From the NCBI GenBank assembly GCA_937924775.1, contig CALDUT010000004.1:62001-126000 (forward strand): 64,000 nt of DNA, given 5' to 3'. The translations under genes were made by a program, and so were the position numbers. Position 1 is the stretch's first letter. Every line of letters starts with the position of its first letter. Below, in pieces: positions 2,963 through 30,835 of this stretch. This DNA is from an uncultured Gemmata sp. GTDB taxonomy: Bacteria > Planctomycetota > Planctomycetia > Gemmatales > Gemmataceae. Below the pieces are notes generated by a model, which saw only the letters and a list, made by a program, of their open reading frames with translations, had not been told where the DNA came from and searched no databases.

Positions 2963-3150
2963 ATTGGTTGTCCCCGATGCTGCCGTGGACGACGACACCC
3001 GATTGTACTCGAGCTGGCTCTGTCAGGACTGCCGAGGTTATTTTGGGGAACAATGGGGAGATGTTACCCGTCCGTCGGCAACGGGGCTTCCTTTTAGTTG
3101 TGGTCTGTGGTAATAAGTATATAGTTGTTCAGATTGTGAGGGGAGGTGCG

Positions 3151-3764: not shown

Positions 3765-3779
3765 GGGGTGTGGGAGTGA

Positions 3780-5063: not shown

Positions 5064-5090
5064 CACAATTGCTCCTGGGGTGTTTGTTCT

Positions 5091-5118
5091 ATTGTACGCC
5101 CCGCGTCGGCGGGAAGTC
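5091..5118 (-). promoter_or_regulatory. Possible promoter for ribBA
   Basis: On the minus strand, TACAAT (5096-5091) is preceded by a TGAC-containing -35-like hexamer at about 17 nt. The ATG is about 27 nt downstream of the box, with an SD between them. The assignment is inferred from the hexamers only. Confidence 0.35.
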
Positions 5119-6667: not shown

Positions 6668-6836
6668 AACTGGATAACCCCGAACCGGTTCGATGTGCGC
6701 TTATTCTACGCGGACACCGGTACTACGGGACAGCCGGCGAATCGGTTCATTCGTCACAAAAAGCTTCCGCGCACAACGGTGGTCGGCTCATCCGAGCGGG
6801 TTGGCCGACCCAAGATCGGAGACCCAAGATCGGAAT

Positions 6837-7151
6837 TCAGTCGTCCGAGGCCGGACGGGCCGTGGCCCCGGGGGCCGGCGGGGTCGCGCCCGGCATGCCC
6901 GGATAGGCTCCGGGCAGATTGGCGAGGCTCGTTTGATTCTTGGCTTGCACGGCCCCCGAAGCGTCGAGGTAGATTTTGTCCTGCAGAATTTCTTGAATCA
7001 CGATGGCCATGCGGTCGGTGAGGCCGCGGGTATCGACCAGCGGCTTGGCTCCCGTGTTGAGGGCGATCATGCGTTTTTGAATCAGTGTCGAGAGCTTGAA
7101 GCGGCCCCCCACTTTGTTCACAATCGCTTCTTCTTTTAACTCGTCGAGCAT
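6837..7151 (-). CDS. rpoZ: DNA-directed RNA polymerase omega subunit
   Basis: Small subunit that helps assemble RNA polymerase by binding the beta' subunit. The 104-residue protein has the family core [20 protein letters not shown] near the N terminus, then a helix ([18 protein letters not shown]). A low-complexity Pro/Gly/Ala tail ends [17 protein letters not shown] and is longer than in proteobacterial omega. The start at 7151 has GGAGG 8 nt upstream. It follows gmk by 13 nt, and the gene order yicC-gmk-rpoZ is a widespread conserved cluster that supports the assignment. Confidence 0.9.
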
Positions 7152-7164
7152 AAGCAACCTCCGA

Positions 7165-7755
7165 TCAATGGAACCGCTCGCCAATCCGCTGACGCAGTTC
7201 GCGGACGGCCTGCTCCAGATCGCGGTTCACGATCTGGTGGTGAAATTGTCCCGCTGCGGCCAATTCCCGTTGGGCCGTTTGGAGACGGCGGGCAATCCGC
7301 TCCGCGGATGTATCGTTGCGCCCGCGCAAGCGGGCTTCCAATTCTGTCAGGCTCGGCGGCGCGATGAAGATGGACAGACTTTCCGGGCACAGTTCCCGCA
7401 CGCGGGCGGCCCCTTGGACGTCGATGACCAGTATCACTCCGATCCCTTGTGCCAAATACGGTTCGACTTCGCTTTTGGGGGTCCCGTAGTAATCGTCGCC
7501 GAAAACGATGGCATATTCCAACAGTCGGTTTTCGGCAATTTCTTTCTGGAATCGCTCGCGACTCCAGAAGTGGTAATCGCGGCCATCCTCCTCCCCGGGG
7601 CGCGGGGGGCGTGTTGTGGCCGTGATGGCCCGGCGTAGGGGCGGGTGAGCATTCTCCATCTGCGTCAGCAGCCGCTGCACCACGGTGGTTTTGCCCACCC
7701 CGCTGGGCCCGGATACCACAATCAGCGGGGCTTTCGCCGTTGTACCGCTCATCAT
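7165..7755 (-). CDS. gmk: Guanylate kinase
   Basis: Phosphorylates GMP to GDP with ATP. The 196-residue protein has the P-loop GPSGVGKTT near residue 16 and the GMP-binding [18 protein letters not shown] stretch. The lid region is present, as is the family's [13 protein letters not shown] segment. Two ATG codons (7755 and 7752) are adjacent; a G-rich SD lies immediately upstream, so the second may be used. It is in the middle of the yicC-gmk-rpoZ run, 17 nt after yicC. Full length, with all motifs intact. Confidence 0.97.
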
Positions 7756-7772
7756 CCCCCCCGCGGGCCTGG

Positions 7773-8663
7773 CTATTCGATGTTGAGGACCAGTTCGCGA
7801 AGCTTTTCCAAGGTCGCTTTAATCTCAAAAACCTGACGGCTGATCGCCACATCGCCGGCTTTGGAACCGATCGTGTTGGCTTCCCGGCCCATTTCCTGAA
7901 TGACGAATTCCAGCTTCCGCCCCGCCTCATCGCCCTTACGAACCAATTCGGCCAACTGCTCCAGATGGCTCGTCAATCGGGTGACTTCTTCCGAGACATC
8001 CGTGCGATCGGCAAACAGAGCCACCTCCCGAATGATACTTTCGGCACTCACCACCACACCCGCCTCGGCGACCGCCTGCCGGACGCGTTCGAGCAGCCGC
8101 TGCCGGTACTCGCTGACGACCCCCGGCAGCAACTCCCGCAAGCTCGCCAATTGGTCCGCAATCGCCCGGTGATACCCCAGCAGTTCCGCGGCCATGGCCT
8201 GACCTTCGTCGTGCCGCATGGCGTTGACTTTCGCCAAGGCGGCTTCCAACGTTTGTTCGACGATGGGCCATTCATCCTCGGGCAAGCTGGTACTGCCCCG
8301 CGGCTCGGGAGCAACGCCGGGCAATGCCAATGCCCCAGCCAAGAGCGGTGCAACAAACTCCGGGGTTCCGGCTTCGTCGCAAGCGGTGCGGATCTGCCGC
8401 ACATAGTCGGCCAAGGCAGCGATGTTCAAGGGAGGGACCGCCGCCGGCGAAGACCGATCGACTCGAATGTGAATGTGGAGTGTCCCGCGGCGAATGTGCC
8501 GACGAACGATTTTCTCCAATTCCGATTCGTAAAGTGGGTAAGGCTCGGAACCCCGAACGGTCAGTTTCAGATACCGGTTGTTGAGGGCCCGGACCTCCAC
8601 CGACACGCCGACTGTCTCCGTCTGCGTGCGAGCTTCGCCAAACCCGGTCATGCTCCGCAACAC
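7773..8663 (-). CDS. yicC: YicC/YloC family endoribonuclease
   Basis: The family has been shown to cleave RNA and is typically encoded next to gmk. The protein begins LRSMTGFGEAR, the hallmark start, and contains VEVRALNNRYLKLTVRG. The C-terminal part carries the family motifs GRKLEFVIQEMGREANTIGSK and AGDVAISRQVFEIKATLEKL. I chose the GTG at 8663 because GAGG lies 8 nt before it. A GTG at 8672 in the same frame overlaps that SD and would add three residues. This gives 296 residues, normal for the family. It heads the yicC-gmk-rpoZ cluster, 99 nt after secG on the same strand. Confidence 0.93.
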   Translation of the reverse strand: MLRSMTGFGEARTQTETVGVSVEVRALNNRYLKLTVRGSEPYPLYESELEKIVRRHIRRGTLHIHIRVDRSSPAAVPPLNIAALADYVRQIRTACDEAGTPEFVAPLLAGALALPGVAPEPRGSTSLPEDEWPIVEQTLEAALAKVNAMRHDEGQAMAAELLGYHRAIADQLASLRELLPGVVSEYRQRLLERVRQAVAEAGVVVSAESIIREVALFADRTDVSEEVTRLTSHLEQLAELVRKGDEAGRKLEFVIQEMGREANTIGSKAGDVAISRQVFEIKATLEKLRELVLNIE

Positions 8664-8762
8664 GCCGGCCACCTCGTTGATAATCCTTACGTTCTGTGAT
8701 TTTCCCCCCTACGGAGGACAATCCGAGTGATTATTGACTGGATTTCTTGCACTTTCTGGAGC

Positions 8763-9059
8763 TTAGTTGGTTTTGCCAATCATCGGTCGGTTTTCTTGTT
8801 CACTAATATCATATTTGACCACTTTGACATGGATCATAATGACCAGCACCCACACACCGGCCAACCAGAGCGTCACGCGAACGAACTGATCGGCCGCCCG
8901 CGACCCAAAAGGACTCGAGCCGCCTGCACCACCAAACGCGCCGGCCAAACCACCGCCTTTACCGCGTTGAATCAACACCACCAGCATCAGGAGCAACCCC
9001 AAACACAAAACAATCAGGTTGAGAAGATGCGAAACCCACCACGCGGCAAAGACAGTCAC
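8763..9059 (-). CDS. secG: Preprotein translocase subunit SecG
   Basis: Small membrane subunit of the SecYEG protein export channel. Two membrane helices flank the diagnostic loop IQRGKGGGLAGAFGGAGG, which continues SSPFGSRAADQFVRVT. The second helix is LWLAGVWVLVIMIHVKVV. GTG at 9059 is preferred because GGAGG is 7 nt upstream; a GTG at 9077 is only 1 nt from its nearest SD. A TACAAT box at 9119-9124 could be its -10 element. Length and topology fit the family. Confidence 0.9.
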   Translation of the reverse strand: MTVFAAWWVSHLLNLIVLCLGLLLMLVVLIQRGKGGGLAGAFGGAGGSSPFGSRAADQFVRVTLWLAGVWVLVIMIHVKVVKYDISEQENRPMIGKTN

Positions 9060-9424
9060 GACCAAGCCTCCCCACACCTCCCGCGACCAAGCCGCGGGTC
9101 CAGGATCCCTGAACAGTTATTGTAGAAACATCTCCGGTGACCGGGTAGCGGTTGTTCGGATCCGATCTCCCCAGGCAGTTCCTTCCCAATGGGCCCGCGA
9201 ACAGAGGTGCCAGTTCTCAAGACGCAGCGGGCTGCTCCCAGAGCGAAGCGTTCTACCCCAGCAAAACCAAGGCGACGGGCGATTCAATAGCGATAACCGG
9301 ATCGGGGAAGGGCGACTATCTTTGTCCCACGGCATAATTTTGAGGTTCGGCCTGAATTCCTGGGGGTATTCTCCCCCTTAGCGAACTGAGGTTCATCTTT
9401 TCGGACCCACCTCGTCATGATGGA

Positions 9425-9453
9425 TGTTCCAAGCATCACCACCGCTTGGAACA
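9425..9453. repeat. 10-bp perfect inverted repeat with 9-nt loop
   Basis: TGTTCCAAGC (9425-9434) and GCTTGGAACA (9444-9453) are perfect reverse complements around ATCACCACC. No T-run follows on either strand. It could be an operator or an RNA hairpin. No transcript is assigned to it. Confidence 0.6.
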
Positions 9454-9520
9454 CAGTGCGGCATTCCGCGGTTGGGATCATTCTCGTGCTTGTTAAAATG
9501 ATAATCTATATTCGCCCTTA

Positions 9521-9560
9521 CATCCTCAACATACTCATCCTCAACATAATCATCCTTAAC
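9521..9560. repeat. 15-bp tandem repeat, about 2.7 copies
   Basis: CATCCTCAACATACT (9521-9535) is followed by CATCCTCAACATAAT (9536-9550), then CATCCTTAAC (9551-9560). The repeat is in intergenic DNA of lower GC than the genes around it. Confidence 0.7.
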
Positions 9561-9766
9561 TAGGGCGAGAGAACCTCATCACCGGTGCCGCGATCGGCCT
9601 GAAGCGGAGTAATTCGGAATGAACGCCACGGGTCCTTACGGAGTCACCAATTTTGCGAGGTTATAGGTAAGGAAACCGCCGGTTTTCCGATCGTTCTGCC
9701 CAGGGGTTTCCGAGACTCCCCGAGCATTTGTTTTTACCCGACCGTCGGCATCGCCATGGGTCGGAC

Positions 9767-9795
9767 TTGTCAGGAGAAGATCGATCCGGGACAAT
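9767..9795 (+). promoter_or_regulatory. Probable promoter of tRNA-Arg
   Basis: TTGTCA (9767-9772) and GACAAT (9790-9795) are spaced by exactly 17 nt. They end 9 nt before the mature tRNA, which fits a housekeeping sigma-70-type promoter. Confidence 0.5.
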
Positions 9796-17717: not shown

Positions 17718-19118
17718 TTAAGCTTCCGCTTTTTTCTCGCTTTCGCGGCGCCATTCTTGCAGTTTGCGGTACATCGTCCGCTCGCTGATATTGAGCAGTT
17801 TGGCCGCCTCCTCGCGGTTGCCGCCGGTCAGTTCGAGCGCTTTTTCGATGTAGTAGCGTTCCACTTCATCCAGTGGCCGGCCGATGAGATGATTGGCCCC
17901 GGCCGCTGGCGCAGAACCCGTATTGCTGAACGTAAGTGCTTTGATGCCAGCATCTTCGGGAAAATCGTCGGGGGTGAGTTCCCCATCCAGGTCGAGAATC
18001 ATCATGCTGTCGAGCAGGTTGCGTAATTCGCGGACGTTGCCGGGCCAATCGTGGTTTTCGAGGGCTTTCCACACCGCGGGAGAAACCTTGGGCACCGGCT
18101 TGTTGTAGCGTTTCGAAAATTCTTTGAGAAAATGGGCGACCAACTGGGGAATGTCTTCTTTATGTTCCCGGAGGGGAGGTAAACGGACCGAACCGACTTT
18201 CAGACGGAAGTATAAGTCTTGCCGGAATCGACCGGCTTCTACCTCCTTCTGGAGGTCTTTGTTGGTGGCGGCGATGATACGAACATCGACTTTGATCGGA
18301 TCGTTGGCCCCGATGCGGATCACCTCGCCATTCTCCAGCACCCGCAAGAGTTTTGCTTGCAGCGTCAGGGGCATATCCCCCACTTCATCTAAAAACAGTG
18401 TGCCGCCATCGGCGTATTCAAAGCGGCCTTTGCGGGCCCCCTTGGAGCCAGTGTAAGCACCATCGACATGGCCAAACATCTCGTCATCCAGTAGGTTTTC
18501 GTTGAGAGCTGCGCAATTCATCGCGGCGAAAGGTTTGGTTCGCCGCGGGCTGTTGTAGTGCAGGGCGCGGGCCGCCAGTTCTTTGCCGGTACCGTTTTCT
18601 CCCAGAATCAGCACCGAGGCCGAACTGGGAGCATACGCTTTGAGCAGTTGAATTACCCGCAACATCTTGGGACTATTGCCGATAACCCCCTCAAAGCCGA
18701 ATTTTTCGTCGATCTGCCGGCGGAGTTCGCGAACGGTGCGAACCCGTTCGGCGGATTTATCAACCACGGCCCGGAGTTCCGCCAGATCCAGTGGTTTTTG
18801 CAGATAGTGCGAAGCGCCCCGTTTCATCGCTTCGACGGCAGTTTTGACATCGGCAAGCCCCGTGATGACGAACACCTCGGCGTCGGGCCGTAAAGCTCGG
18901 CAGCGCTCCACCACCTCCAAGCCATGGAGATCAGACATCTTCAAATCGGTGAGAACGACATCGAACGGCTCGTGTTCGAGTTTCGTCACCCCGGCTTTAC
19001 CACCGTGAACGACGGTGCAAGTGTGGCCGCGGCGCTCCAAACTCTCGGCAATCGTCTCGGCCAAGAGTTTGTCGTCGTCGATGACAAGGACTTGGAGCGG
19101 TTCGACTGAAGCCGCCAT
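17718..19118 (-). CDS. NtrC-type sigma-54-dependent response regulator
   Basis: A 466-residue activator with three parts. The receiver domain has an acidic pocket at residues 14-16 and phosphorylation Asp at 58 in VVLTDLKMSD. The AAA+ domain has Walker A GENGTGKE, and the sigma-54 contact loop reads GAYTGS instead of GAFTGA. A Fis-type helix-turn-helix closes the protein (GGNREEAAKLLNISERTMYR). It should open sigma-54 promoters when phosphorylated. The start at 19118 has AGGAG 6 nt upstream. The gene follows the haem-motif kinase at 19320-20978, its likely partner, by about 200 nt. I found no convincing -24/-12 promoter in the window, so its targets are probably elsewhere. Confidence 0.94.
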   Translation of the reverse strand: MAASVEPLQVLVIDDDKLLAETIAESLERRGHTCTVVHGGKAGVTKLEHEPFDVVLTDLKMSDLHGLEVVERCRALRPDAEVFVITGLADVKTAVEAMKRGASHYLQKPLDLAELRAVVDKSAERVRTVRELRRQIDEKFGFEGVIGNSPKMLRVIQLLKAYAPSSASVLILGENGTGKELAARALHYNSPRRTKPFAAMNCAALNENLLDDEMFGHVDGAYTGSKGARKGRFEYADGGTLFLDEVGDMPLTLQAKLLRVLENGEVIRIGANDPIKVDVRIIAATNKDLQKEVEAGRFRQDLYFRLKVGSVRLPPLREHKEDIPQLVAHFLKEFSKRYNKPVPKVSPAVWKALENHDWPGNVRELRNLLDSMMILDLDGELTPDDFPEDAGIKALTFSNTGSAPAAGANHLIGRPLDEVERYYIEKALELTGGNREEAAKLLNISERTMYRKLQEWRRESEKKAEA

Positions 19119-19319
19119 AGCGTCTCCTGTGAGGAATCCCGCCGTTAATGTACCGCGAACCACTAGGTTGGGTATGCCGCGGTGGGTGTTATCTCTGAAG
19201 AGGATTGTGGCAGCCGCCCAGGCCGGTGCGAGGGAACCACTTGCGGGACGTCAGAGAGGCCATCGTAACTCACTTTGAACAAACCATTTGCGGCGATACC
19301 GACGGGAGAACCACCTGCG

Positions 19320-20978
19320 TTACACCGGAGGGGCCGCGGTGACCGATTCAGGGCTGGCGGCGGGTTCTTCGCTCAATTCGAAGCCCAGCAGCGGTTCGTC
19401 GGCCATGTGAGCGGCGATTCGCACCGTGAAGGTACTGCCGCGGCCCAATTCGCTTTGCACGGTGACATCGCCGCCGAGCAATTTGGCCAGTTCGCGGACG
19501 ATGGACAGCCCCAGACCAGTACCCCCTTGTTCGCGAGTCATGGGGTTGGCCGCTTGGCGGAATTTTTCAAAGATCAGGTCCTGCTCTTCGGGGGCAATGC
19601 CGACGCCGGTGTCCGAAACGGTAAAAACCAGATCCTTGCCGTCGAGAGTCGCTTTTAGCGTCACCCACCCGCCTTCGGGTGTGAATTTGACCGCGTTGGA
19701 GAGTAGATTGGTGAGAATTTGATGAATCTTGCCAGCATCCTGCCGCGCCGGCGGCAGATCGGGATTAACGACAATCCGCAAATCGATGTTCTTTCTCTCG
19801 GCTTGTTGCCGCAATTGGGCGACTGCATGTTCACAGGCTTGAGGAATGTTGACCAATTCCAAATGGAGCCGCATCTTCCCCGCTTCGAGTTTGGCCAATT
19901 CCAGAATGTCATTGATCAGGGCCATGAGGCGTTGCCCGCTGGCCATGATGTTGGCCGCGTACCGGTGTTGTTTGTCCGTGAGGTTATCGGCCGCTAGGAG
20001 AATTTCTGAAAAACCGATGATGCTGTTGAGCGGGTCTCGCAGTTCGTGGCTCATTGTTGACAAAAATTCACTCTTGAGGCGATTGCTCTCAAAGAGGGCC
20101 ATGTTGACGCGAGCCAACTCATCGACCTTTCGGTCCAGATCGGCAATCAGCTTCTTGTTGCGTTCTTGAATATTGGTGAGATTACGCAGCATGCGGTTGA
20201 AGGCGTGCGAGAGGTCCTCGAATTCATCTCCGGTCTGAATTTCACTGCGGATGTTCAATTCGCCCGCGGCGATCGCTTCCGAGACCTCTTTGAGATGTTT
20301 CACCGGCTTGACGATAACGTAGCGGATAATCAAGTAACTGGCCGCGATGATCAACATCGATGTACCGATCGCGAAGGCGATCAACACGGCCCGGTTGGTA
20401 TGGAACCCCTCTTCGATGGATTGGGTTGATAGCCGAATGCGGACCACCGCCATCACATCGTCGGGTTTCAGTTGCGCAGTAGCGAGTTTTTCGCCGACTT
20501 TCTGTGGATCGCTGTGACAATCCACGCACGAGGGCCGGGCACGAATCACACCGTAGTAGTAAAACGCGTTTTCCTTCGGAGTTTTGCGGGTTTCTTCATT
20601 GGTTTTGGGGTCACTGAGGATGCGGTTCATCGCGGGCAGATCGTCGCTGGTCGGTTGGCTATCGAGGTCTTTCGAATCGGGTTTGATCAGTTTGTAATTG
20701 TAGCCTTTGAGCGATTCGGGCCAGTTTTCTTCAGTGAGTCGTTGGAATTCGTCCACCGCCTTGCGATCGTCACCTTGAACATGCAACCGGGCCACGATGG
20801 GGGAAAGCAGGGCACGGCCGGTCATTTCTAACTGGCCATAGGCGAGGTCTTCGGTTTGCTTAGCATAAACCCAAAAGCTCGCGGTCATCAGCATCAGTAC
20901 CAGGGCCCCGAGGAGCCAACGGCATTTCCGTTCGAGACTTGTTTCTCCCAACAAACGTTTGAACGCTTTATATGACAT
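19320..20978 (-). CDS. Membrane sensor histidine kinase with periplasmic DUF3365 haem-motif domain
   Basis: Order of parts: membrane helix at about residues 21-39; periplasmic DUF3365 domain with a c-type haem motif CVDCH at 151-155; membrane helix at about 197-222; HAMP linker; a coiled coil; HisKA with the phospho-acceptor His at 311 in MSHELRDPLN; and an ATPase domain with NLLSNAVKF, DTGVGIAP and GTGLGLSIV. The residue after the LR of the H-box is Asp instead of the usual Thr. The covalent haem suggests sensing of redox state, oxygen or NO. It follows mutM by 12 nt and precedes its probable response regulator. SD is weak. Confidence 0.9.
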   Translation of the reverse strand: MSYKAFKRLLGETSLERKCRWLLGALVLMLMTASFWVYAKQTEDLAYGQLEMTGRALLSPIVARLHVQGDDRKAVDEFQRLTEENWPESLKGYNYKLIKPDSKDLDSQPTSDDLPAMNRILSDPKTNEETRKTPKENAFYYYGVIRARPSCVDCHSDPQKVGEKLATAQLKPDDVMAVVRIRLSTQSIEEGFHTNRAVLIAFAIGTSMLIIAASYLIIRYVIVKPVKHLKEVSEAIAAGELNIRSEIQTGDEFEDLSHAFNRMLRNLTNIQERNKKLIADLDRKVDELARVNMALFESNRLKSEFLSTMSHELRDPLNSIIGFSEILLAADNLTDKQHRYAANIMASGQRLMALINDILELAKLEAGKMRLHLELVNIPQACEHAVAQLRQQAERKNIDLRIVVNPDLPPARQDAGKIHQILTNLLSNAVKFTPEGGWVTLKATLDGKDLVFTVSDTGVGIAPEEQDLIFEKFRQAANPMTREQGGTGLGLSIVRELAKLLGGDVTVQSELGRGSTFTVRIAAHMADEPLLGFELSEEPAASPESVTAAPPV

Positions 20979-20990
20979 AACGCGATCTCA

Positions 20991-21824
20991 TTATCGTTGA
21001 CACGTTGGGCAGAAGTGCGACGAGCGGCCGGCCAGGCGTCGACAAGCGATCGGGGTTTGACACACCGGGCACGGTTTCCCGGTGCGGCCATAGACTGCCA
21101 ATTCGTTTTGGAACTGCCCCCGCAGTCCCGAACCGCCAATGTAATCACGAATGGTGCTGCCGCGACGGTCGATCGCCCGCTGGATGACCGTTTCGATCGC
21201 TTGGCGCAGTCGATCGCACTCCTTCGCTTGCAGGCTCTGCCCGGGGCGGGCCGGATGTAGCCGGGCCCGGAAGCACGCTTCATCCGCATAAATGTTGCCA
21301 ACCCCGGCAATGATGGTTTGATCCAGCAAAAGGGCCTTCAAGTTCCGTTGACTATTCCGCACCCTGTCGTGGAAATAGTCTGCGGGAATATCGAATGGCT
21401 CAGGGCCGAGTGCGGCGTTCATCGCGGCTTCGACTTCGCCTCCGTGGGTAAAAAATTCTACGCGGCCGAAGCGGCGGGGATCGCGGAAACGCAGTTCCTG
21501 GCCGTTCTCGAGCTGGAATGCGACGTGAACGTGATCCGGTTGGGGCGTATTCCCGGGTACGACGGTGAACTGTCCGGTCATGCCCAAGTGGACGCGCAAA
21601 AGCGGCAGATCGGCACTGGCTGGGTTTCCGCGTAAGTCCACGAGAATCCACTTGCCGCGACGGCGAACAGCTGTTATGAGCATGCCGAGGATGTGCTTAT
21701 TCCAACGTGGCTGCCACGGATAGCGCAGTTTTTGGCGACTGTGTTGTACACTTGTGATCCGCCGTGAAACCAAGGCTGGGCGTAGGTCCCGCACGACGGT
21801 TTCCACTTCGGGTAACTCTGGCAT
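20991..21824 (-). CDS. mutM: Formamidopyrimidine-DNA glycosylase
   Basis: Base-excision repair enzyme removing 8-oxoguanine and ring-opened purines. The 277-residue protein starts with the catalytic MPELPEVETVVRDL (Pro1 after Met removal, Glu2). It holds GKWILVDLRG and the helix-two-turn-helix AGVGNIYADEACFRARLHP. It ends with the zinc finger CPVC-x15-HFCPTC (the first Cys of the second pair follows HF). The ATG at 21824 is fixed by the mandatory N terminus; the upstream open frame is not coding. It is 12 nt ahead of the haem-sensor kinase and so may share its transcript. Full length. Confidence 0.96.
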   Translation of the reverse strand: MPELPEVETVVRDLRPALVSRRITSVQHSRQKLRYPWQPRWNKHILGMLITAVRRRGKWILVDLRGNPASADLPLLRVHLGMTGQFTVVPGNTPQPDHVHVAFQLENGQELRFRDPRRFGRVEFFTHGGEVEAAMNAALGPEPFDIPADYFHDRVRNSQRNLKALLLDQTIIAGVGNIYADEACFRARLHPARPGQSLQAKECDRLRQAIETVIQRAIDRRGSTIRDYIGGSGLRGQFQNELAVYGRTGKPCPVCQTPIACRRLAGRSSHFCPTCQR

Positions 21825-21977
21825 GCCTCCGGTTCCCGCGACGACTATCGGGGGCAGCGCGATAGTTCCCCCGGATTGTAACCTCGGCTGGCCAACCCAG
21901 TGGCCGCTATTGTGGCGAACCCAGGGCCAAGCCACAAGAGCGGCTGGCCCGCGGATTGGCATTCGGGCTATACCGAC

Positions 21978-24900
21978 TTATTTCTTTTGCAGGTAAGCAC
22001 TTCGGTCGCGGGTGAAGCGTTCGGTATCAGCCGCGGAGAGAACGAACACATCGCTGCGGTCCTTGTCCACGACCCGGGCGTAGCGTTGCTGGTTGCCAGT
22101 TCCGCCGACAACGCCGCCGATGGCCAATTCCCGCGAACTGCCGTCGGAAAGAGTGACCGTGATGGTGAATTCGGGGGGGGCCAGCCCGAAGAGCTTCCAA
22201 TCCGCGTCTTTATCGACGGCATAGCGTTCGACTTGCAGACCCGCGAGGCGACTGAGCAGATCGCTGACCGCGGCGGCATCGATGGCGTCGGCACTGGCAG
22301 CGTCTTTCCAGGTCGTGCCGTCTTTTTTCAGACTGAAGCGGTTGTTGCCCCGGGTGATGGTAAGGGTTTCGGCTTGGAAAGCGTCGAGAGTCCACGCTTT
22401 GCGGACTCGGTATTCACCCAGAACCTTGTTGGTTTGCGGAACCCCGAGGAGTGCGACCAGTTCGCCGGTGGCGGTTGTCGCGTAAGCGCGGCCATCGTCG
22501 GTCTTTTTGCCGATCCGCAGCACGAGTTCCACTTTCTCACCGTTTTTGACGGTCCAGATGGCTTGCGGGTTCTCTAAGCCGAAGTCCTTGATTTGCTGAG
22601 GGTTGGGTTGGAAGGCGACCCAGTCGCTGGCACGCAGTTGGGCCAGTTCATTGACCAGATCATCGAGGGCGGATTGGTCGGCGTCGGTATTCAGCGGTTG
22701 TGTGACTTTCCACGTCCCGGCGACTTTGGTGAAGGTGATGCTGCGGCCGGGTCGTTCGAGAGTCAGCGAATCGGCATCGACGAATCGGGCGATGGTTCGA
22801 TCGCGGAAGGATACCGGGGGAGCGAGCAGCTTGTTCACCAGATTGGCCGGCAGAATGCCCACGGTGGCTTCCGCCGTGGCCGACTCCACGGCGGCATAGC
22901 GGTCGCCGGTAGGCTTGGCCGCATCCACCGGCCGCCCGATTCGCAGAACCTTCTGTTCCAGCTTCTCGCCGATAGTCAATGTGAGGACAGCTGCGGCCGG
23001 TTCCAAGCCGTAGGGGGGGAAGATGTCCGCTTTTTTCCCTACAGCGACCACCTTTTCGGCCCGCAGCCGGCTGAGAGTTTCTCCCAATTCCTCGACCAGA
23101 CGTGTGTCGGCTTTGAATTGGCTGGGTTTGACGACATCCCAGCCATCGCCAGCTCCCGGGGCCAGTTCGAGTTCTTCGGAAGCCTTCTGCCGCGTCAGGC
23201 CCAGCAATTCTTCCGCTTTGAAGCTGAAGAAAGTGCGGTCGGCAAAGTCGAGCTTGGTACGGGCGAGGGCTTGGACGGCACGGGCGGATAGAACACCGAC
23301 GGCCGGACCGTCGTCCACCCGCACGAATCGGCCGCCAGCGGCATCGGGCTTGCCAAGGCGGATGGTGCGCGTTTGCGGCTTTTCCCCTCTGAGTGTGATG
23401 ACGAGGGTGTATTCAGGTTTATCAAGTCCGTAATCAGCCCCGGCGACCGCCTCCCCGTAGGCCGCAATGCGATCGATGGGCAGGGGGGCGAAGGTATTGG
23501 CCAATTCGGCCGCGACTACCCTATCCACGGTGAAGGTGGCTTCTGCGGCTTGCCATTGGCCCTTTTCGTCCTGGGTGAGTGTGACGGCGTGTTCTGGTTT
23601 GTCTGTGGTGATTTGCACCTGAGCGATCTGGCTGACATCGAGGAATAGCAAGTTCCGATCGAGCAGGGCTAATGGGGCCGTTTGGGCTGCGGTCCGATAC
23701 GCCGCCGGAAGTACGAACACCGGGGCATTGTCCTCATCGAGTTTGGCGTAATGATCGAACACACCCGCGGTGACACTGCCGATGAGCACTGCTTGCGTCA
23801 CAGTTTGTTCACCGTTGCTGGTTTTCTTGGTGTAGGTCAGTTTCACTTTCGCCAGCGGCTTATCGAAGCCATATCGGGCCGGATCGGTGACTTGCAGGGA
23901 TTCGTACTTCGTGGCGGTGAGATTGCCCAGTTGGGTGAGCATTGGTTGGGCGCTGAGAAAAGGCACTGTCGCGGTGAAGGGTCCGGTGAGTTTCCAATTG
24001 GTACCCTCGGGCGTGAGGGTGAACGATTCATTGGGTTGGTCGAAACGGGTGATTTCGACAGCTCGAATGGCATTGGGCGTTACTGACCAAACGGTTTGCG
24101 GGAGCAATTCCAAGGGCCCGGCGGCCAGACGCTCGGTTGTACTAGCAGCCAGGGTGAAGACGGCACCTTGGTCGAGTCGGGCAAAGACTTCGTCCTTCTG
24201 GCCGGGGCGTGGTTTCCCGATCTCGAGGGTGTAGTGGCGGTTGTTGCTGAAAGTGAGCCGGACGGTGAATTGCGGTTTATCCAGGCCGTATTCTGCGAGG
24301 TTGGCCGGTTGTTCAGCGAGAAATTCGCGGGCTTGTAAGCCAGTCAGTTGGGATACGAGCGGTTCGAGGGTCTGCGGGTTAGTTTCGGAGGTGATGGGAA
24401 CCGTCAGTTTCCAACCTTCCCCGCCATCGGATTGCTTGTGGCGTTCGAGTGTGAAGCCTTTTTCTCCCTCCACTGCGATTCCCGTGAGTGTGGTATCCGC
24501 GGTGTCGAACAGTTTGCGGCTGCGGTAGGTGATAGCATCGCGGCGGAAGGTGGGTTCGAGCCGTTGGGGGAACAGGGCTTCGCCCAGCCAACTACTGTCG
24601 GCGGTGGTCGTGGTCAGGCGGTCTTTCACTAACGTGATCCGCGGCCAGCCGGCCAGTTGCACCGGCAACTGAGCTTGAGCAAAGTCGGGTGTGCCGACCA
24701 GAATCGTGTATTCGCGTGCGGGGGCATCGGGCTCGCCGGCCGGCCGCTTCTCGCGCGCAAGCACTGTGATGCGCACACACCGGGCCGGGTCCAGACCGCG
24801 GCTGAGAGGATCGGTGCGGTACAAATCCGTAGCCGGATCACCGCGGAGGTTCGTGATCCGAGAGATGAGTTCCTCCACGCGGTCGCGGTCGGCCAGAAGG

Positions 24901-26420
24901 GGGTTGCGGCCTCCTTCAATCAACCAGCGGTCTTCCCGATCTTCGCGGTTGAAAGCCCGCGGATTGCCTTTTTGGCGTTGGAGGTGAATCGGTGTTTGGT
25001 CCGGTCGGTGAATGGTGATCGCCCAGACTTCGTCGGAGGAAAACCGGGCCACGCGGGTGTCGATCAAGTCTCCAGCGGTGGTGAAAATCGGTTGCAGCTT
25101 CTCCGCGGGTACCGTGACGATTTGGGGGTTCCCCTCCACCTGCGCGAAGCGGTAGGCCGTGGTGACAAGCCGTTTTTCTGTACGCGGGGTCACATCGGGA
25201 ATGGGAGAACGGATCGTCTCGATTTCTTCGCGTTGCACGAAGGTGAAACCGCCCAGCTTCACCGTCACAGTTTTGCCGTCTTGCTGGATGACGCGGATGG
25301 TGTGGGACGAGCGGTCGAGGCCGGCCCGGGCTTCGGGGGCCACCCGATCGGCCAGGGGCATCAGAAACGCTCCACTGGGGTGAACGCGTGCCAGAAGCGC
25401 TGGGACCGGCTCCAGCGGACTCGGTAGCATCTGGGCTATTGCGAACGGATGATCGACCGCAAACCCCACATCGCGGGAGGTCAAGAACTGCTCCACCCAC
25501 AAATCCGGCAGTGCCGCCAGTACCCGTTGCAGGGTGGTGGGGTTGGCTCGGTCGCGGCGGGGCGATTCCACCGCCCAGGCATCGGCCAGGCGATCAGGTT
25601 GAACGGTTGGTTCAGCGTTTCGCTCGGTCACTGTGGGGCGTGGCGTGGGCCCGATGCGTTGCAGGGTGAAATTTTCACTGGCAAACCAGATCGGGTGTCC
25701 CCAGAGCCGAACGATCTTACCCTGCACTTGGATTTGCTGCACCGCCGGGCCAGGAAGTGTGAGCGTGTTGGGCACCGGCGGTTCGGGCGGCAAGCCGGGT
25801 TGGGTGAAGGTGGGCGTTCCGGCGAATTTGACACGCTCCACTTCGGAAAACAACTGCCGCCGGCGGTAGGCATCGGCCGGGCGGCGCACCACCGGCATCA
25901 CGTCGGGGCCAAGCTTGAGAACTTCTGGAGCATTGTTGACTTGCATATAGGCCGGTCGAGTGAACGGCACATCACCCGGTTGAGTCGGGGGTTCGCCCAA
26001 CCGCAGCGTATATTCTGCGGATGTGGCGGTTTTCACTTTCACCACAAACGGTTTTTGACCCTCCGCCAAGCCAAAAGGCGTCAGATCTCCCCCGACAATG
26101 GGTATGGGATGAAACCGCGTGCGGAGCGAACCAAGTGTTTCCACCAATTCGTTCACTTCCGCCCGGCGCAGGGGCCAGCCCCCCGGTTGCGACCAACCGT
26201 CGGCCTCACGCACAAACAGAAACGGATCACCCTCAGGCGGGAGAATTTCGATGTGGACGATATTCGCGGGCGTAAAGTCGCGTTCGAAGGCCGTGACCGT
26301 GGGCGAATCCGCCGGGACCGATTGGGGAGCCCACTGCGGCAGCCACTCATCCCCTTTCCACAGCCAAGCCCCCGCCCCCCCGGCGAGGATCAGAAGCAGA
26401 AGCGTACTCTTCCAATTCAT
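21978..26420 (-). CDS. Giant DUF4340-repeat membrane-anchored protein, 1480 aa
   Basis: An N-terminal membrane anchor (STLLLLILAGGAGAWLW) precedes an extracytoplasmic chain of similar units. Each unit carries a signature of the type Leu-x-x-(Val/Glu)..., then Tyr/Phe-Gly-Leu/Phe-(Asp/Glu/Ala)-x-Pro, then a beta strand. I see it near residues 115, 320, 541, 710, 850, 997, 1137, 1280 and 1410; the last seven are about 130-170 residues apart. Examples are YGLDKPQFTVRLTF, YGFDKPLAKVKLTY, YGLDKPEYTLVITL and FGLENPQAIWTV. DUF4340 proteins are usually 300-500 residues and are encoded with GldG-like ABC modules, as here: the GldG-like gene ends 26 nt upstream. Probably a periplasmic or wall-facing partner of that module. 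Substrate unknown. Confidence 0.85.
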   Translation of the reverse strand: MNWKSTLLLLILAGGAGAWLWKGDEWLPQWAPQSVPADSPTVTAFERDFTPANIVHIEILPPEGDPFLFVREADGWSQPGGWPLRRAEVNELVETLGSLRTRFHPIPIVGGDLTPFGLAEGQKPFVVKVKTATSAEYTLRLGEPPTQPGDVPFTRPAYMQVNNAPEVLKLGPDVMPVVRRPADAYRRRQLFSEVERVKFAGTPTFTQPGLPPEPPVPNTLTLPGPAVQQIQVQGKIVRLWGHPIWFASENFTLQRIGPTPRPTVTERNAEPTVQPDRLADAWAVESPRRDRANPTTLQRVLAALPDLWVEQFLTSRDVGFAVDHPFAIAQMLPSPLEPVPALLARVHPSGAFLMPLADRVAPEARAGLDRSSHTIRVIQQDGKTVTVKLGGFTFVQREEIETIRSPIPDVTPRTEKRLVTTAYRFAQVEGNPQIVTVPAEKLQPIFTTAGDLIDTRVARFSSDEVWAITIHRPDQTPIHLQRQKGNPRAFNREDREDRWLIEGGRNPLLADRDRVEELISRITNLRGDPATDLYRTDPLSRGLDPARCVRITVLAREKRPAGEPDAPAREYTILVGTPDFAQAQLPVQLAGWPRITLVKDRLTTTTADSSWLGEALFPQRLEPTFRRDAITYRSRKLFDTADTTLTGIAVEGEKGFTLERHKQSDGGEGWKLTVPITSETNPQTLEPLVSQLTGLQAREFLAEQPANLAEYGLDKPQFTVRLTFSNNRHYTLEIGKPRPGQKDEVFARLDQGAVFTLAASTTERLAAGPLELLPQTVWSVTPNAIRAVEITRFDQPNESFTLTPEGTNWKLTGPFTATVPFLSAQPMLTQLGNLTATKYESLQVTDPARYGFDKPLAKVKLTYTKKTSNGEQTVTQAVLIGSVTAGVFDHYAKLDEDNAPVFVLPAAYRTAAQTAPLALLDRNLLFLDVSQIAQVQITTDKPEHAVTLTQDEKGQWQAAEATFTVDRVVAAELANTFAPLPIDRIAAYGEAVAGADYGLDKPEYTLVITLRGEKPQTRTIRLGKPDAAGGRFVRVDDGPAVGVLSARAVQALARTKLDFADRTFFSFKAEELLGLTRQKASEELELAPGAGDGWDVVKPSQFKADTRLVEELGETLSRLRAEKVVAVGKKADIFPPYGLEPAAAVLTLTIGEKLEQKVLRIGRPVDAAKPTGDRYAAVESATAEATVGILPANLVNKLLAPPVSFRDRTIARFVDADSLTLERPGRSITFTKVAGTWKVTQPLNTDADQSALDDLVNELAQLRASDWVAFQPNPQQIKDFGLENPQAIWTVKNGEKVELVLRIGKKTDDGRAYATTATGELVALLGVPQTNKVLGEYRVRKAWTLDAFQAETLTITRGNNRFSLKKDGTTWKDAASADAIDAAAVSDLLSRLAGLQVERYAVDKDADWKLFGLAPPEFTITVTLSDGSSRELAIGGVVGGTGNQQRYARVVDKDRSDVFVLSAADTERFTRDRSAYLQKK

Positions 26421-26446: not shown

Positions 26447-29032
26447 TTACCGCATACGGCGAATGAGCATGACAATCAAACCCAAATACGCGACAGCCAA
26501 CGGCGGCCCAAACCATCCCCCCCACCGCCATAAGTTCCGTTCGCTCTCGGTCAGAGCTACCCGGGGGTAATGCCACGGTGTCACGTCGGCTCGCGGCAGC
26601 CGATCCTCGCGTCTGGTCAGCCAATTGACGCTGTGAACCAACAGCTTTTCTTGCCCTGGCGACAGTTCTTTACCCGTGAAGACGGTACCGCTGCCAATCA
26701 CAATCATTCGTTGCGTGGGGCGTTCGATCCGCTCGGCTGCGAGGGTTAAACCCACCGTGAACAGACTATCGAAGGGTAGGAATAAGGCTGCCGCAGCCTG
26801 TTGCCGGTCGAAATCCTCCTTCACCCACGCCACCGGGATGGGGCTTTCGACAGCGACCGCAACGGAGAACGGTCCCCGCCGCTCCTCATCGCGCTTGCCT
26901 TTCTTGGGGTCGTCCAATCCCACTGGTTCGTATTTCGGGGTGTACACCAGCACCCGTGCTCCATCTCGGCGGCGGCCCACGATGGGGAACGGTTGCAGGT
27001 CGTTCCACGTTTCCGGCACAGTGGACAGAATCTCGGCGGCAAAACGCTGGTGTTGTTGCCAGCCCGGGGCGAGAGTGACCGGCCGTAGGGCCTTCAATTT
27101 GATGTCCAAATTGCTCTCCGCGGTACGGGCCGTCAGCCGCAGGGCCGCGGCGACCGGGTTGGGTAACAGCTTGGTGTCTGGGGCCGGGGGTTCGGCAACG
27201 AGCAGCGGTGGCACATCCGCGGGGTTGTTACCGAATTGATCGGCCGTCAGCGAGCGCGTTTCCCCGTCGAAGAGGATGAGTGAGTGGCCCATCTCGATAC
27301 CGCGTTCGGCGATGAGCCGTTCGAGGTCGTCGATTCCCGCGGCCAACTCGTTGGCCAAGCGACGGTCGAAGTCTTCGGCCGATTCGCCCTGTTGCGGGGT
27401 GACTTGGGGGGTGATGGCCCCGAAGCAGACAAGGACGGGCTTGCCGCGTTTCATGAAGTCTTTGATAACGTCGACCTGCTCGCGGCTGAGGGCGTGAACG
27501 GCTGCTTCGACTTCCGGCCCTTCCATGGCGTCTTCGGTCGTAAATCGGGGCAGGATTAGCAGATCGACATCTTCGAGTTGCTTTTGGAATTTCGCGCCGA
27601 TGTTGGTCATGCGGCGGTCTTGCAAGTAGCGTTCGTTTTGGAGCGCTTCAGCGAGGCGTTTTTCCGCCTCTTGGTTTGCTTGGGTGGCTTCTCGCAGCTC
27701 TTCCTCCGCGCGTTGGCTGCGGCGATCGATGAACGCGCGGATTTGCGCCTCTTGCTCTTCAAAGCGGACATTGTTAAACAGTTGGGAATAGAAGGCCCGG
27801 CGTTCGGGCCAGGGGCGGTTTTTGAGCCGTTCGAGTTCGTCGCGAATCAGATTGAGGATGTTGACTTCGGCCACGGCGGTGGCGAGGCGGGCGCTGGCTT
27901 CGCGAGCTTCGCTTTCGAGGCGTTCGAGGGCACTTTCTTCGCGGGTATCAGCCGCCGGTTGAGTTCCGCCGGGTTGCCCCCAGTTCTTTTTCAGCACAAT
28001 ATCGGTGACATCAAAGCCCGCATCGGTGAGAACTTTGCGTAAGCCGGCCATGGTGTAGCGGGCTCGCCACCCATCGGCCCGGGCGGTACTGAGGGCTTCG
28101 TGAACCACGCAGACGGCGACTTTGGGGCGCCGTTCCTGCACGGTGAGAATCCGCTGGGCGAAGCGATCGATCCCCTGTGGCAGTAGCACCAGATTGCCTT
28201 GCCCGTTGTCGAAGGTGCGGCTAGCCGTTTTATCCAATTGCATAAACTCGTTGAAGGTCAGCCGCTGCACTCGTTTGTGGGCATGGAAGAAGATGCTATT
28301 CTCGCTGGCCGCTTCGATGGCCGCACGCAACTCAGGGGCGTTTTGGGTCAGTTCGTCAAGTTCCGATTGGTAGCCGAAGGCTTCCGTATCCAGCACCACG
28401 ACGCGAAATTGTGGACCGAAAGTCCGGAAAAGATCGACCAGATCCTGAACCTTTTCCGTCACGAGCCGTTCCGCAGCGGAGGTGAAACTGTCGCGTTTGG
28501 CCGACAGGTTGCCGAACATGTTGTGCATTTGCAGCACAACAATGGTTGTCGGGGCGTTGCCACGGAGTTGGCTCAGCGCGTTGGCCAATTCTGGAGGCAG
28601 TGTGAAACGTTGATCGCGGGTGCAATCGAAACGCCGATGATGGGTGAACGAGTAGTAATTCACCATACCCAAAAGCGCGATCGCCGCAACAATGCTGGCC
28701 GTGGCGACCGTGCCGGCAGCGGTGCGCCGCCCCAAGCCGAGGATCAGGAGGCTAAGAAGTTCTACCAGCACGGCCACGGCCACCGCGAGGCCTCCGCCGG
28801 CGAGTAACCACGCCGCGACTTGGGCCCAGTCACCGTGACGGCCTTCGCTGGCGGCCCGAAGCTGCTCGGGGAAGGCCTGCCAGCCATCGAGTGTCGAAAG
28901 ATCGACACCGGGGAGGGCGACGGCGATCAACAGGGTGCCTACAGCGACCGCCAGCGCCCCGGTCAGCCCCACGAAGCGAACGATCAGCCGGAACCAGTTG
29001 CCTAACGTGGTGCGTTGTCGTGTGTCGGCCAT
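26447..29032 (-). CDS. GldG-like ABC transporter accessory protein, 861 aa
   Basis: Four N-terminal hydrophobic segments lie in about residues 15-160. An extracytoplasmic domain of the GldG/ABC_transp_aux type follows (RDQRFTLPPELANALSQL, then PTTIVVLQMH). A charged coiled coil at about 360-480 is rich in Glu, Arg and Ala (EEELREATQANQEAEKRLAE). A second alpha/beta domain contains DVLILPRFTT-like and MKRGKPVLVCFG segments. A last membrane helix near the C terminus (WWGGWFGPPLAVAYLGLIVM region) precedes a basic tail. It lies 97 nt after the ABC permease and 26 nt before the DUF4340 gene. By family knowledge, such sets resemble the gliding-associated GldAFG exporters, but gliding is not implied here. 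Confidence 0.85.
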   Translation of the reverse strand: MADTRQRTTLGNWFRLIVRFVGLTGALAVAVGTLLIAVALPGVDLSTLDGWQAFPEQLRAASEGRHGDWAQVAAWLLAGGGLAVAVAVLVELLSLLILGLGRRTAAGTVATASIVAAIALLGMVNYYSFTHHRRFDCTRDQRFTLPPELANALSQLRGNAPTTIVVLQMHNMFGNLSAKRDSFTSAAERLVTEKVQDLVDLFRTFGPQFRVVVLDTEAFGYQSELDELTQNAPELRAAIEAASENSIFFHAHKRVQRLTFNEFMQLDKTASRTFDNGQGNLVLLPQGIDRFAQRILTVQERRPKVAVCVVHEALSTARADGWRARYTMAGLRKVLTDAGFDVTDIVLKKNWGQPGGTQPAADTREESALERLESEAREASARLATAVAEVNILNLIRDELERLKNRPWPERRAFYSQLFNNVRFEEQEAQIRAFIDRRSQRAEEELREATQANQEAEKRLAEALQNERYLQDRRMTNIGAKFQKQLEDVDLLILPRFTTEDAMEGPEVEAAVHALSREQVDVIKDFMKRGKPVLVCFGAITPQVTPQQGESAEDFDRRLANELAAGIDDLERLIAERGIEMGHSLILFDGETRSLTADQFGNNPADVPPLLVAEPPAPDTKLLPNPVAAALRLTARTAESNLDIKLKALRPVTLAPGWQQHQRFAAEILSTVPETWNDLQPFPIVGRRRDGARVLVYTPKYEPVGLDDPKKGKRDEERRGPFSVAVAVESPIPVAWVKEDFDRQQAAAALFLPFDSLFTVGLTLAAERIERPTQRMIVIGSGTVFTGKELSPGQEKLLVHSVNWLTRREDRLPRADVTPWHYPRVALTESERNLWRWGGWFGPPLAVAYLGLIVMLIRRMR

Positions 29033-29129: not shown

Positions 29130-30113
29130 TTAGCGTAAGCGCCGGGCTTCCAGACTGCGCACGGTCAAAAACAGGCAGCACAGCGTGACGCTGACGTACA
29201 ACACCAGCGGGCGGGTATCGATCACACCCCGGGTGAAGTCGCGGCGGAAATGTTCCGGCACGCTGATGTAATACACCAGCGGGTCAATCACGGAACCGGT
29301 ATCGAACTGCCACCGCAGCGCCGCCGGCAACACAAAGCATAACCCCAACAACAACGACAGCATCCAGGCCACCAATTGGCTTTTCACCCAACTGGAGACG
29401 AGTAAGCCCAGGGCCAGGAACATCGCTCCGGCCAGCACAATCCCCAGGTAGGAAGTCAACACGGGAAAAAAATCGATTCCGGATTTGACTTCCAGAAAAT
29501 ATTGCTCATCTTTTGTATAGTGGAGATACCCACCGGCGATGGCTAATCCCCAGCCCATCAGCCCCAAGAACAGTACCAATCCGCTACTCAGCTCGTACCA
29601 AAACGCGAGTTTGGCGAAGATAATGAAGGCGATTCCCACCAGAAGTGCCACGCTGAACGGCGTGAACACCGGCCGCCACTGCGCGTGCAGATTGGCCAGG
29701 ATGGGGACGTAGAGCAGAGTGACCGTCCACATTAGCAGATAGAAGCCGAAACAGGCGATAAATTTGGCGAGAACCACTTGCCAATCGCGGATCGGGGCGG
29801 TCAGAAGCGTTTCGAGCGTGCCGGTGCCGCGTTCTTCGGCGATCAGCCGGGAGGTGATAATCCCCGTAACAGCGGGGAAAAGTCCCCAGAACAGCACGCC
29901 GGCCACCAGGGCCCATTCGGGGTCGTCGGCTCCGCCGAGCATGACCTGCATCGGGTATTCCACCCCGCGGGGGCCTTTTTCTGTCAACAACCCGACCACC
30001 AGAAAGAACAGCAACCCGTTGAGGACCAGAAAACTGAATAGCGCGACATAACCAATCGGCCCCAGGAAATACGCAGCCAATTCGCGGCGGATCAGCGAGA
30101 GTGTGGCACGCAT
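29130..30113 (-). CDS. ABC transporter permease (ABC-2/GldF type)
   Basis: A 327-residue integral membrane protein with about six helices: GPIGYVALFSFLVLNGLLFF, LVAGVLFWGLFPAVTGIITS, LAKFIACFGFYLLMWTVTLL, and further segments to LSLLLGLCFVLPAAL. The conserved ABC-2 cytoplasmic element RLIAEERGTGTLETLLTAPI is present. The start at 30113 has AGGAGG 7 nt upstream, and its ATG overlaps the stop of the ATPase gene (TGATG), indicating translational coupling. It forms the channel part of the ATPase-permease-GldG-DUF4340 module. Confidence 0.93.
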   Translation of the reverse strand: MRATLSLIRRELAAYFLGPIGYVALFSFLVLNGLLFFLVVGLLTEKGPRGVEYPMQVMLGGADDPEWALVAGVLFWGLFPAVTGIITSRLIAEERGTGTLETLLTAPIRDWQVVLAKFIACFGFYLLMWTVTLLYVPILANLHAQWRPVFTPFSVALLVGIAFIIFAKLAFWYELSSGLVLFLGLMGWGLAIAGGYLHYTKDEQYFLEVKSGIDFFPVLTSYLGIVLAGAMFLALGLLVSSWVKSQLVAWMLSLLLGLCFVLPAALRWQFDTGSVIDPLVYYISVPEHFRRDFTRGVIDTRPLVLYVSVTLCCLFLTVRSLEARRLR

Positions 30114-30835
30114 CAGATACCCTCCTGACCGGTGAGCCGAACGAAAATATCTTCCAGCGGTTGGTTGCCGTGCCGGTCGCGCACGGCGGCCAGCGCACCC
30201 TCTTCCACCACCTGGCCCTGATAGATGACGATGACCGAATCGCAAGTGGCTTCCACTTCGCTGAGAATGTGTGTCGAAAGGAGCATGGTATGCATCTGCC
30301 CCAGTTCGCGAATGAGCTTCCGGGTTTCCCGGATCTGCGCCGGGTCCAAGCCGGCGGTGGGTTCATCGAGAATCAGGACCGGGGGATCGGCCAGCAGGGC
30401 GTCGGCCAGGCCGACCCGCTGCCGGTAACCTTTCGAGAGTGTGCCAATCAACTGGCGGCGAACGTCCGTCAGCCAACAGCGCTCTGTGACGTAGCCCAGC
30501 CGCTGTTTGCGCTCCCGGCGACTCAGACCCTTCAGTCCGCCGCGAAACCACAGATATTCCTCCACGCGCATATCGCCGTACAGCGGGCAGTTCTCCGGCA
30601 TGTAGCCAATGCGGCGGCGGGCCGCCAGGGGATCCCAAAAAACGTCGTGGCCGTCGATACGGACTTGCCCCGAGCTGGCTGTCAGGAAGCCGGCCAGAAT
30701 CCGCATCGTCGTCGATTTCCCAGCTCCGTTGGGGCCCAGGAAACCCACGACCCGACCTTTCTCCACGAAAAACGACACATCCCGAACCGCGGGATATTCG
30801 CCGTAGTACTTCGTCAGGTGCTTCACTTCGATCAT
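30113..30835 (-). CDS. ABC transporter ATP-binding protein (GldA-like)
   Basis: A 240-residue ATPase with Walker A GPNGAGKS at about residues 33-40, a Q-loop region, signature LSKGYRQRV, Walker B VLILDEPTAGLD and the switch His in LLSTHILSE. It energises the permease encoded next, whose start overlaps its stop. ATG at 30835 (MIEVKHLTKYYG) is the standard family start. The 23-residue extension to 30904 is not needed. The SD is weak. It is the first gene of the leftward module, with a divergent methylase gene 114 nt away. Confidence 0.94.
   Translation of the reverse strand: MIEVKHLTKYYGEYPAVRDVSFFVEKGRVVGFLGPNGAGKSTTMRILAGFLTASSGQVRIDGHDVFWDPLAARRRIGYMPENCPLYGDMRVEEYLWFRGGLKGLSRRERKQRLGYVTERCWLTDVRRQLIGTLSKGYRQRVGLADALLADPPVLILDEPTAGLDPAQIRETRKLIRELGQMHTMLLSTHILSEVEATCDSVIVIYQGQVVEEGALAAVRDRHGNQPLEDIFVRLTGQEGI

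What the first reader, a model, noticed from the sequence alone, without database searches (positions are those of the whole stretch)
21978..26420. Giant tandem DUF4340 protein next to a complete GldA/F/G-like ABC module
At least eight and probably nine copies of one signature (Tyr/Phe-Gly-Leu/Phe-x-x-Pro, then a beta strand) recur in one 1480-residue anchored protein. The last seven are spaced about 130-170 residues. The family is normally 300-500 residues. The four genes (ATPase, permease, GldG-like, DUF4340) are packed head to tail, with a TGATG overlap between the first two. This suggests an export or envelope-assembly machine whose outer partner is a long repeat fibre or ruler. The repeat signatures are seen directly; the machine is inferred.
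Basis: partly seen in the sequence, partly recalled or inferred. Interest (0 to 1): 0.72.

Follow-up and report, generated by a model that had tools for sequence, protein, structure and literature searches.

The report
Nine-domain arm of an ABC machine
In one family of planctomycete bacteria, a membrane pump of unknown purpose sits beside an unusually long partner protein made of nine copies of one small domain, which probably reaches out into the cell envelope.

Summary
The 1480-residue protein has one predicted N-terminal membrane helix and nine DUF4340 domains (Pfam, 413 bits, nine stretches); one domain folds at pLDDT 92.9. It follows an ATPase, a permease and a GldG-like gene; the TGATG overlap is real. 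The nine-domain form recurs in Gemmataceae: 26 of 27 complete proteins show nine domains, one shows seven. Of the 23 with enough flank, 20 have all four genes in order, one lacks an adjacent ATPase, two are split from the ABC genes. The claim that the family is normally 300-500 residues fails here: 2 of 41 other Planctomycetota copies examined fall in that range. DUF4340 occurs in 281 of 294 sampled Planctomycetota. So this is the longest version I saw of a widespread four-gene ABC system that I found described in no paper searched. Best reading: a fixed-length periplasmic arm of a GldAFG-like ABC complex. Domain chain and gene partnership are shown; cargo, coupling and reach are inferred. GldA/F/G equivalog cut-offs are not met, so nothing here shows gliding or type IX secretion.

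The parts
30113..30835 (-). GldA-like ABC ATPase, about 240 aa, with Walker A GPNGAGKST and signature LSKGYRQR
   Evidence: PF00005 104 bits (scanned from 30832); TIGR03522 GldA 285.3 bits, cut-off 402.6 not met; motifs and start codon read
29130..30113 (-). ABC-2 type permease, GldF-like, 327 aa from the ATG of TGATG
   Evidence: PF12730 47 bits, cut-off 27 (scanned from 30116); TIGR03518 GldF 99.5 bits, cut-off 288.5 not met; overlap read
26447..29032 (-). GldG-like membrane protein, 861 aa
   Evidence: PF09822 28.2 bits, cut-off 34.7 not met; all 18 aligned GldG-like relatives match PF09822 at E<=0.01, best 1.7e-28
27569..27778 (-). charged, helix-like central insert of the GldG-like protein (about residues 419-488)
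   Evidence: simple composition scan, 70-residue window with 1 Pro/Gly and 42 charged or amide residues
21978..26420 (-). giant DUF4340 protein, 1480 aa
   Evidence: PF14238, 9 stretches, 413.3 bits
26331..26420 (-). predicted N-terminal membrane helix (residues 3-30)
   Evidence: hydrophobic sequence; helix in the AlphaFold2 model at low confidence, pLDDT 51-59
25821..26279 (-). domain 1 (about residues 48-200)
   Evidence: domain profile; most conserved 20 residues of the protein at 171-190
25083..25625 (-). domain 2 (about residues 266-446), degenerate, contains a poorly predicted stretch 319-365
   Evidence: domain profile; pLDDT under 50 at 319-365
24540..25082 (-). domain 3 (about residues 447-627)
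   Evidence: domain profile
24111..24539 (-). domain 4 (about residues 628-770)
   Evidence: domain profile; AlphaFold2 model of residues 637-779, pLDDT 92.9, pTM 0.85
23688..24110 (-). domain 5 (about residues 771-911)
   Evidence: domain profile
23250..23687 (-). domain 6 (about residues 912-1057)
   Evidence: domain profile
22806..23249 (-). domain 7 (about residues 1058-1205)
   Evidence: domain profile; with domain 8 the best conserved
22431..22805 (-). domain 8 (about residues 1206-1330)
   Evidence: domain profile
21981..22430 (-). domain 9 (about residues 1331-1480), ends at the C-terminus
   Evidence: domain profile

Best explanation
The locus encodes one inner-membrane ABC complex. 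The ATPase and permease form the motor; the GldG-like protein is its periplasmic partner; the DUF4340 protein is anchored by one N-terminal helix and carries a chain of nine small beta-rich domains into the periplasm. The chain works as a long arm of fixed length that couples the ATP-driven motor to something away from the inner membrane: it holds, guides or positions cargo or another envelope part. Shown: nine homologous domains, their fixed number, the gene partnership. Inferred: assembly into one complex, topology, straightness of the arm, and everything about cargo and mechanics.
For: Nine domains by independent Pfam model and by position profiles; 26 of 27 complete proteins with nine. Domain folds with confidence as a compact unit: three strands, helix, strand, four strands, helix. 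Four-gene order in 20 of 23 giant loci with enough flank, in 32 of 33 other Planctomycetota loci with enough flank when permease-GldG fusions are counted, and permease-GldG-DUF4340 in 8 of 8 second-system loci, 6 of them with the ATPase beside them. No further gene family recurs beside the giant operon in more than 4 of 22 loci once antisense frames over the operon itself are set aside, so the four genes are the unit. All 23 giant-type GldG proteins have a charged helix-like central insert (0-3 Pro+Gly, 30-42 charged/amide of 70) against 2-7 and 14-32 in 39 others. A DUF4340 domain is essential in Verrucomicrobium spinosum (passage of PMC12283558).
Against: No model of the complex and no coordinates to measure the shape of the chain; the 1200-residue model has pTM 0.53, so the arrangement of the domains is unknown. 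Two of 23 giants are split from the ABC genes and one lacks an adjacent ATPase. GldG-type proteins occur without DUF4340 in 6 of 13 sampled DUF4340-negative genomes. Three genomes of the same genus group show no giant-type GldG, so the system can be missing. The helix-insert scan is a crude measure and its ranges overlap.
Confidence: 0.5

Rival explanations
1. Lipid or hydrophobic-cargo bridge, working like LptA or TamB: the nine domains line up their sheets into a continuous groove from inner to outer membrane.
For: ABC motor plus long repeat chain is the plan of such bridges (recalled). The own genome has LptF/LptG and MlaD matches but none for TamB PF04357 or LptD_N/LptA-type PF03968, although 6 of 14 control genomes ring for each of the two.
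Against: Pfam finds only DUF4340 in 12 of 12 giants scanned. The domain's strands look amphipathic: in 7 of 8 strands one side is clearly less hydrophobic (hydrophobic fraction 0.17-0.43 against 0.52-0.90), as in a sheet with one polar open face. Low Pfam reach, not true absence, may explain the missing bridges. One genome only, 97% complete.
Confidence: 0.15
2. Passive tether or spacer: the chain fixes the distance between inner membrane and another layer, and the ABC genes only assemble or remove it.
For: Fixed domain number; Gemmata has a heavily invaginated inner membrane (passages of PMC3660258 and PMC8567305); two genomes carry the giant away from the ABC genes.
Against: The partnership with ABC genes holds in shorter versions across the phylum. 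No outer-membrane or wall-binding domain is recognised at either end.
Confidence: 0.15
3. Substrate-binding array: each domain binds one stretch of a long polymer or unfolded protein during export.
For: Domains have diverged from each other (paralogous identity means 25-30%) yet each is kept between species (means 42-57%), as expected if each site has its own role.
Against: No conserved putative ligand site was mapped; the same pattern fits any old array.
Confidence: 0.12
4. True gliding or type IX secretion module of the GldA/F/G kind.
For: GldA and GldF models are the best NCBIfam matches of ATPase and permease, and GldG is the only match of the third protein. The ATPase carries LSKGYRQR, the GldA signature named in a passage of PMC9127263.
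Against: All three equivalog cut-offs missed. GldM and SprA give no match in the own genome, but nothing rang in the controls, so that is inconclusive.
Confidence: 0.04

Closest known systems
DUF4340 (Pfam PF14238)
   Same: Nine stretches match, 413 bits
   Different: Nine tandem domains; the other Planctomycetota copies I examined show at most six with my profile
GldA-GldF-GldG ABC transporter of Flavobacterium
   Same: Same three kinds of subunit; best NCBIfam matches are GldA and GldF
   Different: Scores far below the equivalog cut-offs; extra fourth gene DUF4340; no evidence of gliding genes (inconclusive)
Second system of the same genome (permease-GldG-DUF4340 on G000:C1, locus L009)
   Same: Same order of permease, GldG, DUF4340
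   Different: Five DUF4340 domains, longer permease (613 aa), ATPase unlinked at G000:C10:46437-47396
DUF4350/GldG-like secretion or remodelling complexes predicted in archaea (PMC5898192, passages)
   Same: GldG-type periplasmic domain in a predicted envelope complex
   Different: There the partners are a vWA protein and an AAA+ ATPase, not an ABC-2 permease and DUF4340

Membership tests
DUF4340 PF14238 | Score over Pfam gathering cut-off of 25 bits | tested here: met
   413.3 bits
GldA equivalog TIGR03522 | Score over 402.6 bits | tested here: not met
   285.3 bits
GldF equivalog TIGR03518 | Score over 288.5 bits | tested here: not met
   99.5 bits
GldG equivalog TIGR03521 | Score over 389.85 bits | tested here: not met
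   15.9 bits
ABC_transp_aux PF09822 (GldG-type) | Score over 34.7 bits | tested here: not met
   28.2 bits, E 1.4e-06; 18 of 18 aligned relatives match at E<=0.01, best 1.7e-28, so relatedness is supported
Gliding / type IX secretion system | GldM and SprA in the genome | tested here: inconclusive
   no match in the own genome, and none in any control genome
TamB/AsmA-type bridge | Pfam match of the giant protein to such a family | tested here: not met
   only DUF4340 matched in 12 of 12 giants at E<=0.01
LptA-type bridge | Continuous apolar groove through stacked domains | not testable with these tools
   no coordinates returned; strand polarity argues against it
Folds in the PDB | Clear structural match of the single domain | tested here: inconclusive
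   no Foldseek match at E<=0.001; best VIA-align Z 6.5, rmsd 3.2 over 98 residues, to 4q0y, then Mago nashi Z 5.4-5.7, below the usual noise level quoted there

The most novel reading that the evidence does not exclude
A four-part ABC system found throughout the Planctomycetota is a new kind of trans-envelope machine, and in Gemmataceae its nine-domain DUF4340 chain spans the periplasm in place of the TamB- and LptA-type bridges that Pfam did not find in this genome.
Probability: 0.1. Interest if true: 0.82.

Novelty: new variant of a known kind. Interest (0 to 1): 0.42.

Why it matters
DUF4340 occurs in 281 of 294 sampled Planctomycetota genomes, a DUF4340 domain is essential in a Verrucomicrobium, and the library of 5.39 million papers held 2 that use the name, so a widespread envelope component has no known job. 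The Gemmataceae version gives a handle: a fixed nine-domain chain whose domains can be removed one by one to ask whether its length matters.

Tried and rejected
Fold search of the 1200-residue model gave one PDB match at E<=0.001 (9ltr_B, probability 0.11, TM 0.06), which I reject as meaningless; VIA-align best Z 5.6 to 4q0y. Fold search of the single domain against BFVD gave no match at E<=0.001. Sequence search against solved structures with the 18-row alignment gave no match even at E<=10. EspG chaperones and Mago nashi appear among weak structural rows; I claim no kinship.

An attempt to trace the nine domains to positions of the five-domain proteins gave no one-to-one pattern. A first three-domain alignment (A3) was staggered rather than stacked and was not used. 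Conserved neighbours beyond the four genes: none useful; clusters with many loci there were alternate or antisense frames over the operon, judged by their coordinates. A promoter scan and a family tree were not run.

Rows dropped before counts: per-position profiles used 16 of 19 proteins; the single-domain alignment used 108 of 114 domain rows, the six of the incomplete L094 left out; the 1200-residue alignment used the window and 17 of 18 loci (L094 left out). Loci outside the giant family were taken from the best Pfam scores listed, so they are not a random sample and may favour long arrays. The domain profile was trained by iteration on these same loci; it detected none in seven short class-level copies that Pfam does find.

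Full report
What is there. Upstream on the same strand, in order, are an ABC ATPase (30835-30113), an ABC-2 permease (30113-29130; stop and start share the A of TGATG), a GldG-like protein (29032-26447) and the giant (26420-21978). Gaps are 97 and 26 bases. The window lies in a Planctomycetota genome of 4.79 Mb in 27 contigs, 97% complete; the nearest named record is Gemmata sp. SKYG68 at 84% identity.

Is the repeat real? Pfam PF14238 finds nine stretches and 413 bits. Singly, eight of nine pass the cut-off and the first scores 23.1 bits. A profile from copies 2-9 finds the untrained copy 1 at 20.7 bits against 4.5 for the best of 200 shuffles. Profiles of each position from 16 orthologues match across positions: all 30 ordered pairs among copies 4-9 at 96.7% or more; 6 of 72 ordered pairs overall fall below 50%, every one involving copy 2 or 3. 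Copies within the window protein share on average 25-30% identity, copies at the same position in other species 42-57%, so the array is old and its copies do not homogenise.

Structure. AlphaFold2 on 108 single-domain sequences gives a compact domain, pLDDT 92.9, pTM 0.85: three strands, a helix, a strand, four strands, a helix. Residues 1-1200 with 18 sequences give mean pLDDT 81.4 but pTM 0.53, so domains are credible and their mutual arrangement is not. The tools return no coordinates, so the shape of the chain was not measured. No clear relative in the PDB: no Foldseek match at E<=0.001 for the single domain; best VIA-align Z 6.5 (rmsd 3.2, 98 residues) to 4q0y, a level that calls common.

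How constant is it? With a domain profile, 26 of 27 complete giants on distinct contigs show nine domains; one (G023, L055, 1399 residues) shows seven. Named members are Gemmata, Limnoglobus and Fimbriiglobus, besides records labelled only by higher rank and two odd labels (Isosphaera, Bacteroidales). The second system of this genome has five domains, as do all eight loci of that type examined. Other Planctomycetota copies show up to six. Of 41 non-giant, untruncated copies, 2 have frames of 300-500 residues (467 and 377); the rest range from 549 to 1218 (stop-to-stop frames).

Gene partnership. Of 27 complete giants, 4 are cut by the contig end (3 of these still show GldG beside them, one shows nothing). 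Of the other 23, 20 have ATPase, permease, GldG and DUF4340 in order. G005 has no GldA-type ATPase beside the permease (a 713-aa ABC frame with a weak match lies about 1.3 kb upstream). In G004 the giant is preceded by an unrelated opposite-strand gene and the three ABC genes stand together on another contig; in G023 likewise. Assembly error in these metagenome-derived genomes is not excluded. G001, G003 and G007 give no match to the giant-type GldG. Among 33 other Planctomycetota loci with enough flank (13 of L057-L069, 20 of L125-L144), 32 have all parts together, counting permease-GldG fusions, and one (L062) lacks the adjacent ATPase. Of 8 second-system loci, 6 have the ATPase beside them and 2 do not; in this genome it lies on another contig. 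Across the phylum 281 of 294 genomes have DUF4340 at E<=0.001. Against strict dependence: of 13 genomes without it, 6 have PF09822 over the cut-off, 2 weakly, 5 not; of 13 chosen genomes with it, 8, 1 and 4.

A new side observation. All 23 giant-type GldG proteins carry a charged, helix-like central stretch (0-3 Pro+Gly and 30-42 charged or amide residues of 70); the 39 other GldG-type frames have 2-7 and 14-32. The measure is crude and the ranges overlap, but it suggests that partner and arm lengthened together.

How it may work. Established family knowledge: an ABC ATPase with a complete Walker A and LSKGYRQR signature powers a permease; in Flavobacterium GldF and GldG hold GldA at the membrane and the set is needed for the stability of other envelope proteins (passages of PMC9127263). 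Inference: the DUF4340 protein, anchored by its first helix, adds a long periplasmic arm. The most conserved 20 residues lie at the end of domain 1 (171-190) and the best conserved domains are 7 and 8, which would fit one contact near the membrane and another far out. The lipid-bridge rival gains from the lack of TamB and LptD_N-type matches in this genome while 6 of 14 controls ring, with LptF/G and MlaD present; it loses from strands that look amphipathic with a polar side.

Literature. DUF4340 appears in 2 papers of the library; I saw one passage of PMC12283558, where a DUF4340 domain is essential in Verrucomicrobium spinosum, and only the listing of the other. One paper holds GldG, ABC transporter and Planctomycetes together (listing only). 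Passages of PMC10632474 on Planctopirus limnophila essential genes show no 'ABC' or 'transporter' in the main text. Passages of PMC5898192 link GldG-type proteins to predicted archaeal secretion or remodelling complexes. None of these searches turned up a description of this four-gene system.

Verdict. A real and striking array, ordinary in kind for this phylum but extreme in length; function open. Novelty: new variant of a known, unnamed kind.

Noticed in passing
L009 (G000:C1:731000-749000), 3107-9792: Second permease-GldG-DUF4340 system of the same genome with five domains; its likely ATPase lies unlinked at G000:C10:46437-47396, 73% identical to the ATPase of the same system in G014.
   Followed up: partly
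whole genome G000: No match to TamB PF04357 or LptD_N PF03968, while LptF/LptG and MlaD families match.
   Followed up: partly
L086: Contig JAIXLE010000059.1, labelled a Bacteroidales MAG, carries a Gemmataceae-type four-gene operon; probably a mislabelled or mixed bin.
   Followed up: no
window 17718-20978, minus strand: Histidine kinase with a Tll0287-like sensor and a CVDCH haem-type motif, next to a sigma-54 response regulator.
   Followed up: no
window 20991-21962, minus strand: Formamidopyrimidine-DNA glycosylase; the usual start MPELPEVET lies inside the listed frame, at about 21824.
   Followed up: no
L061, L063-L069, L135, L143, L144: In other Planctomycetota the permease and GldG are fused into one frame of 888-1117 aa, upstream of a shorter DUF4340 gene.
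   Followed up: partly
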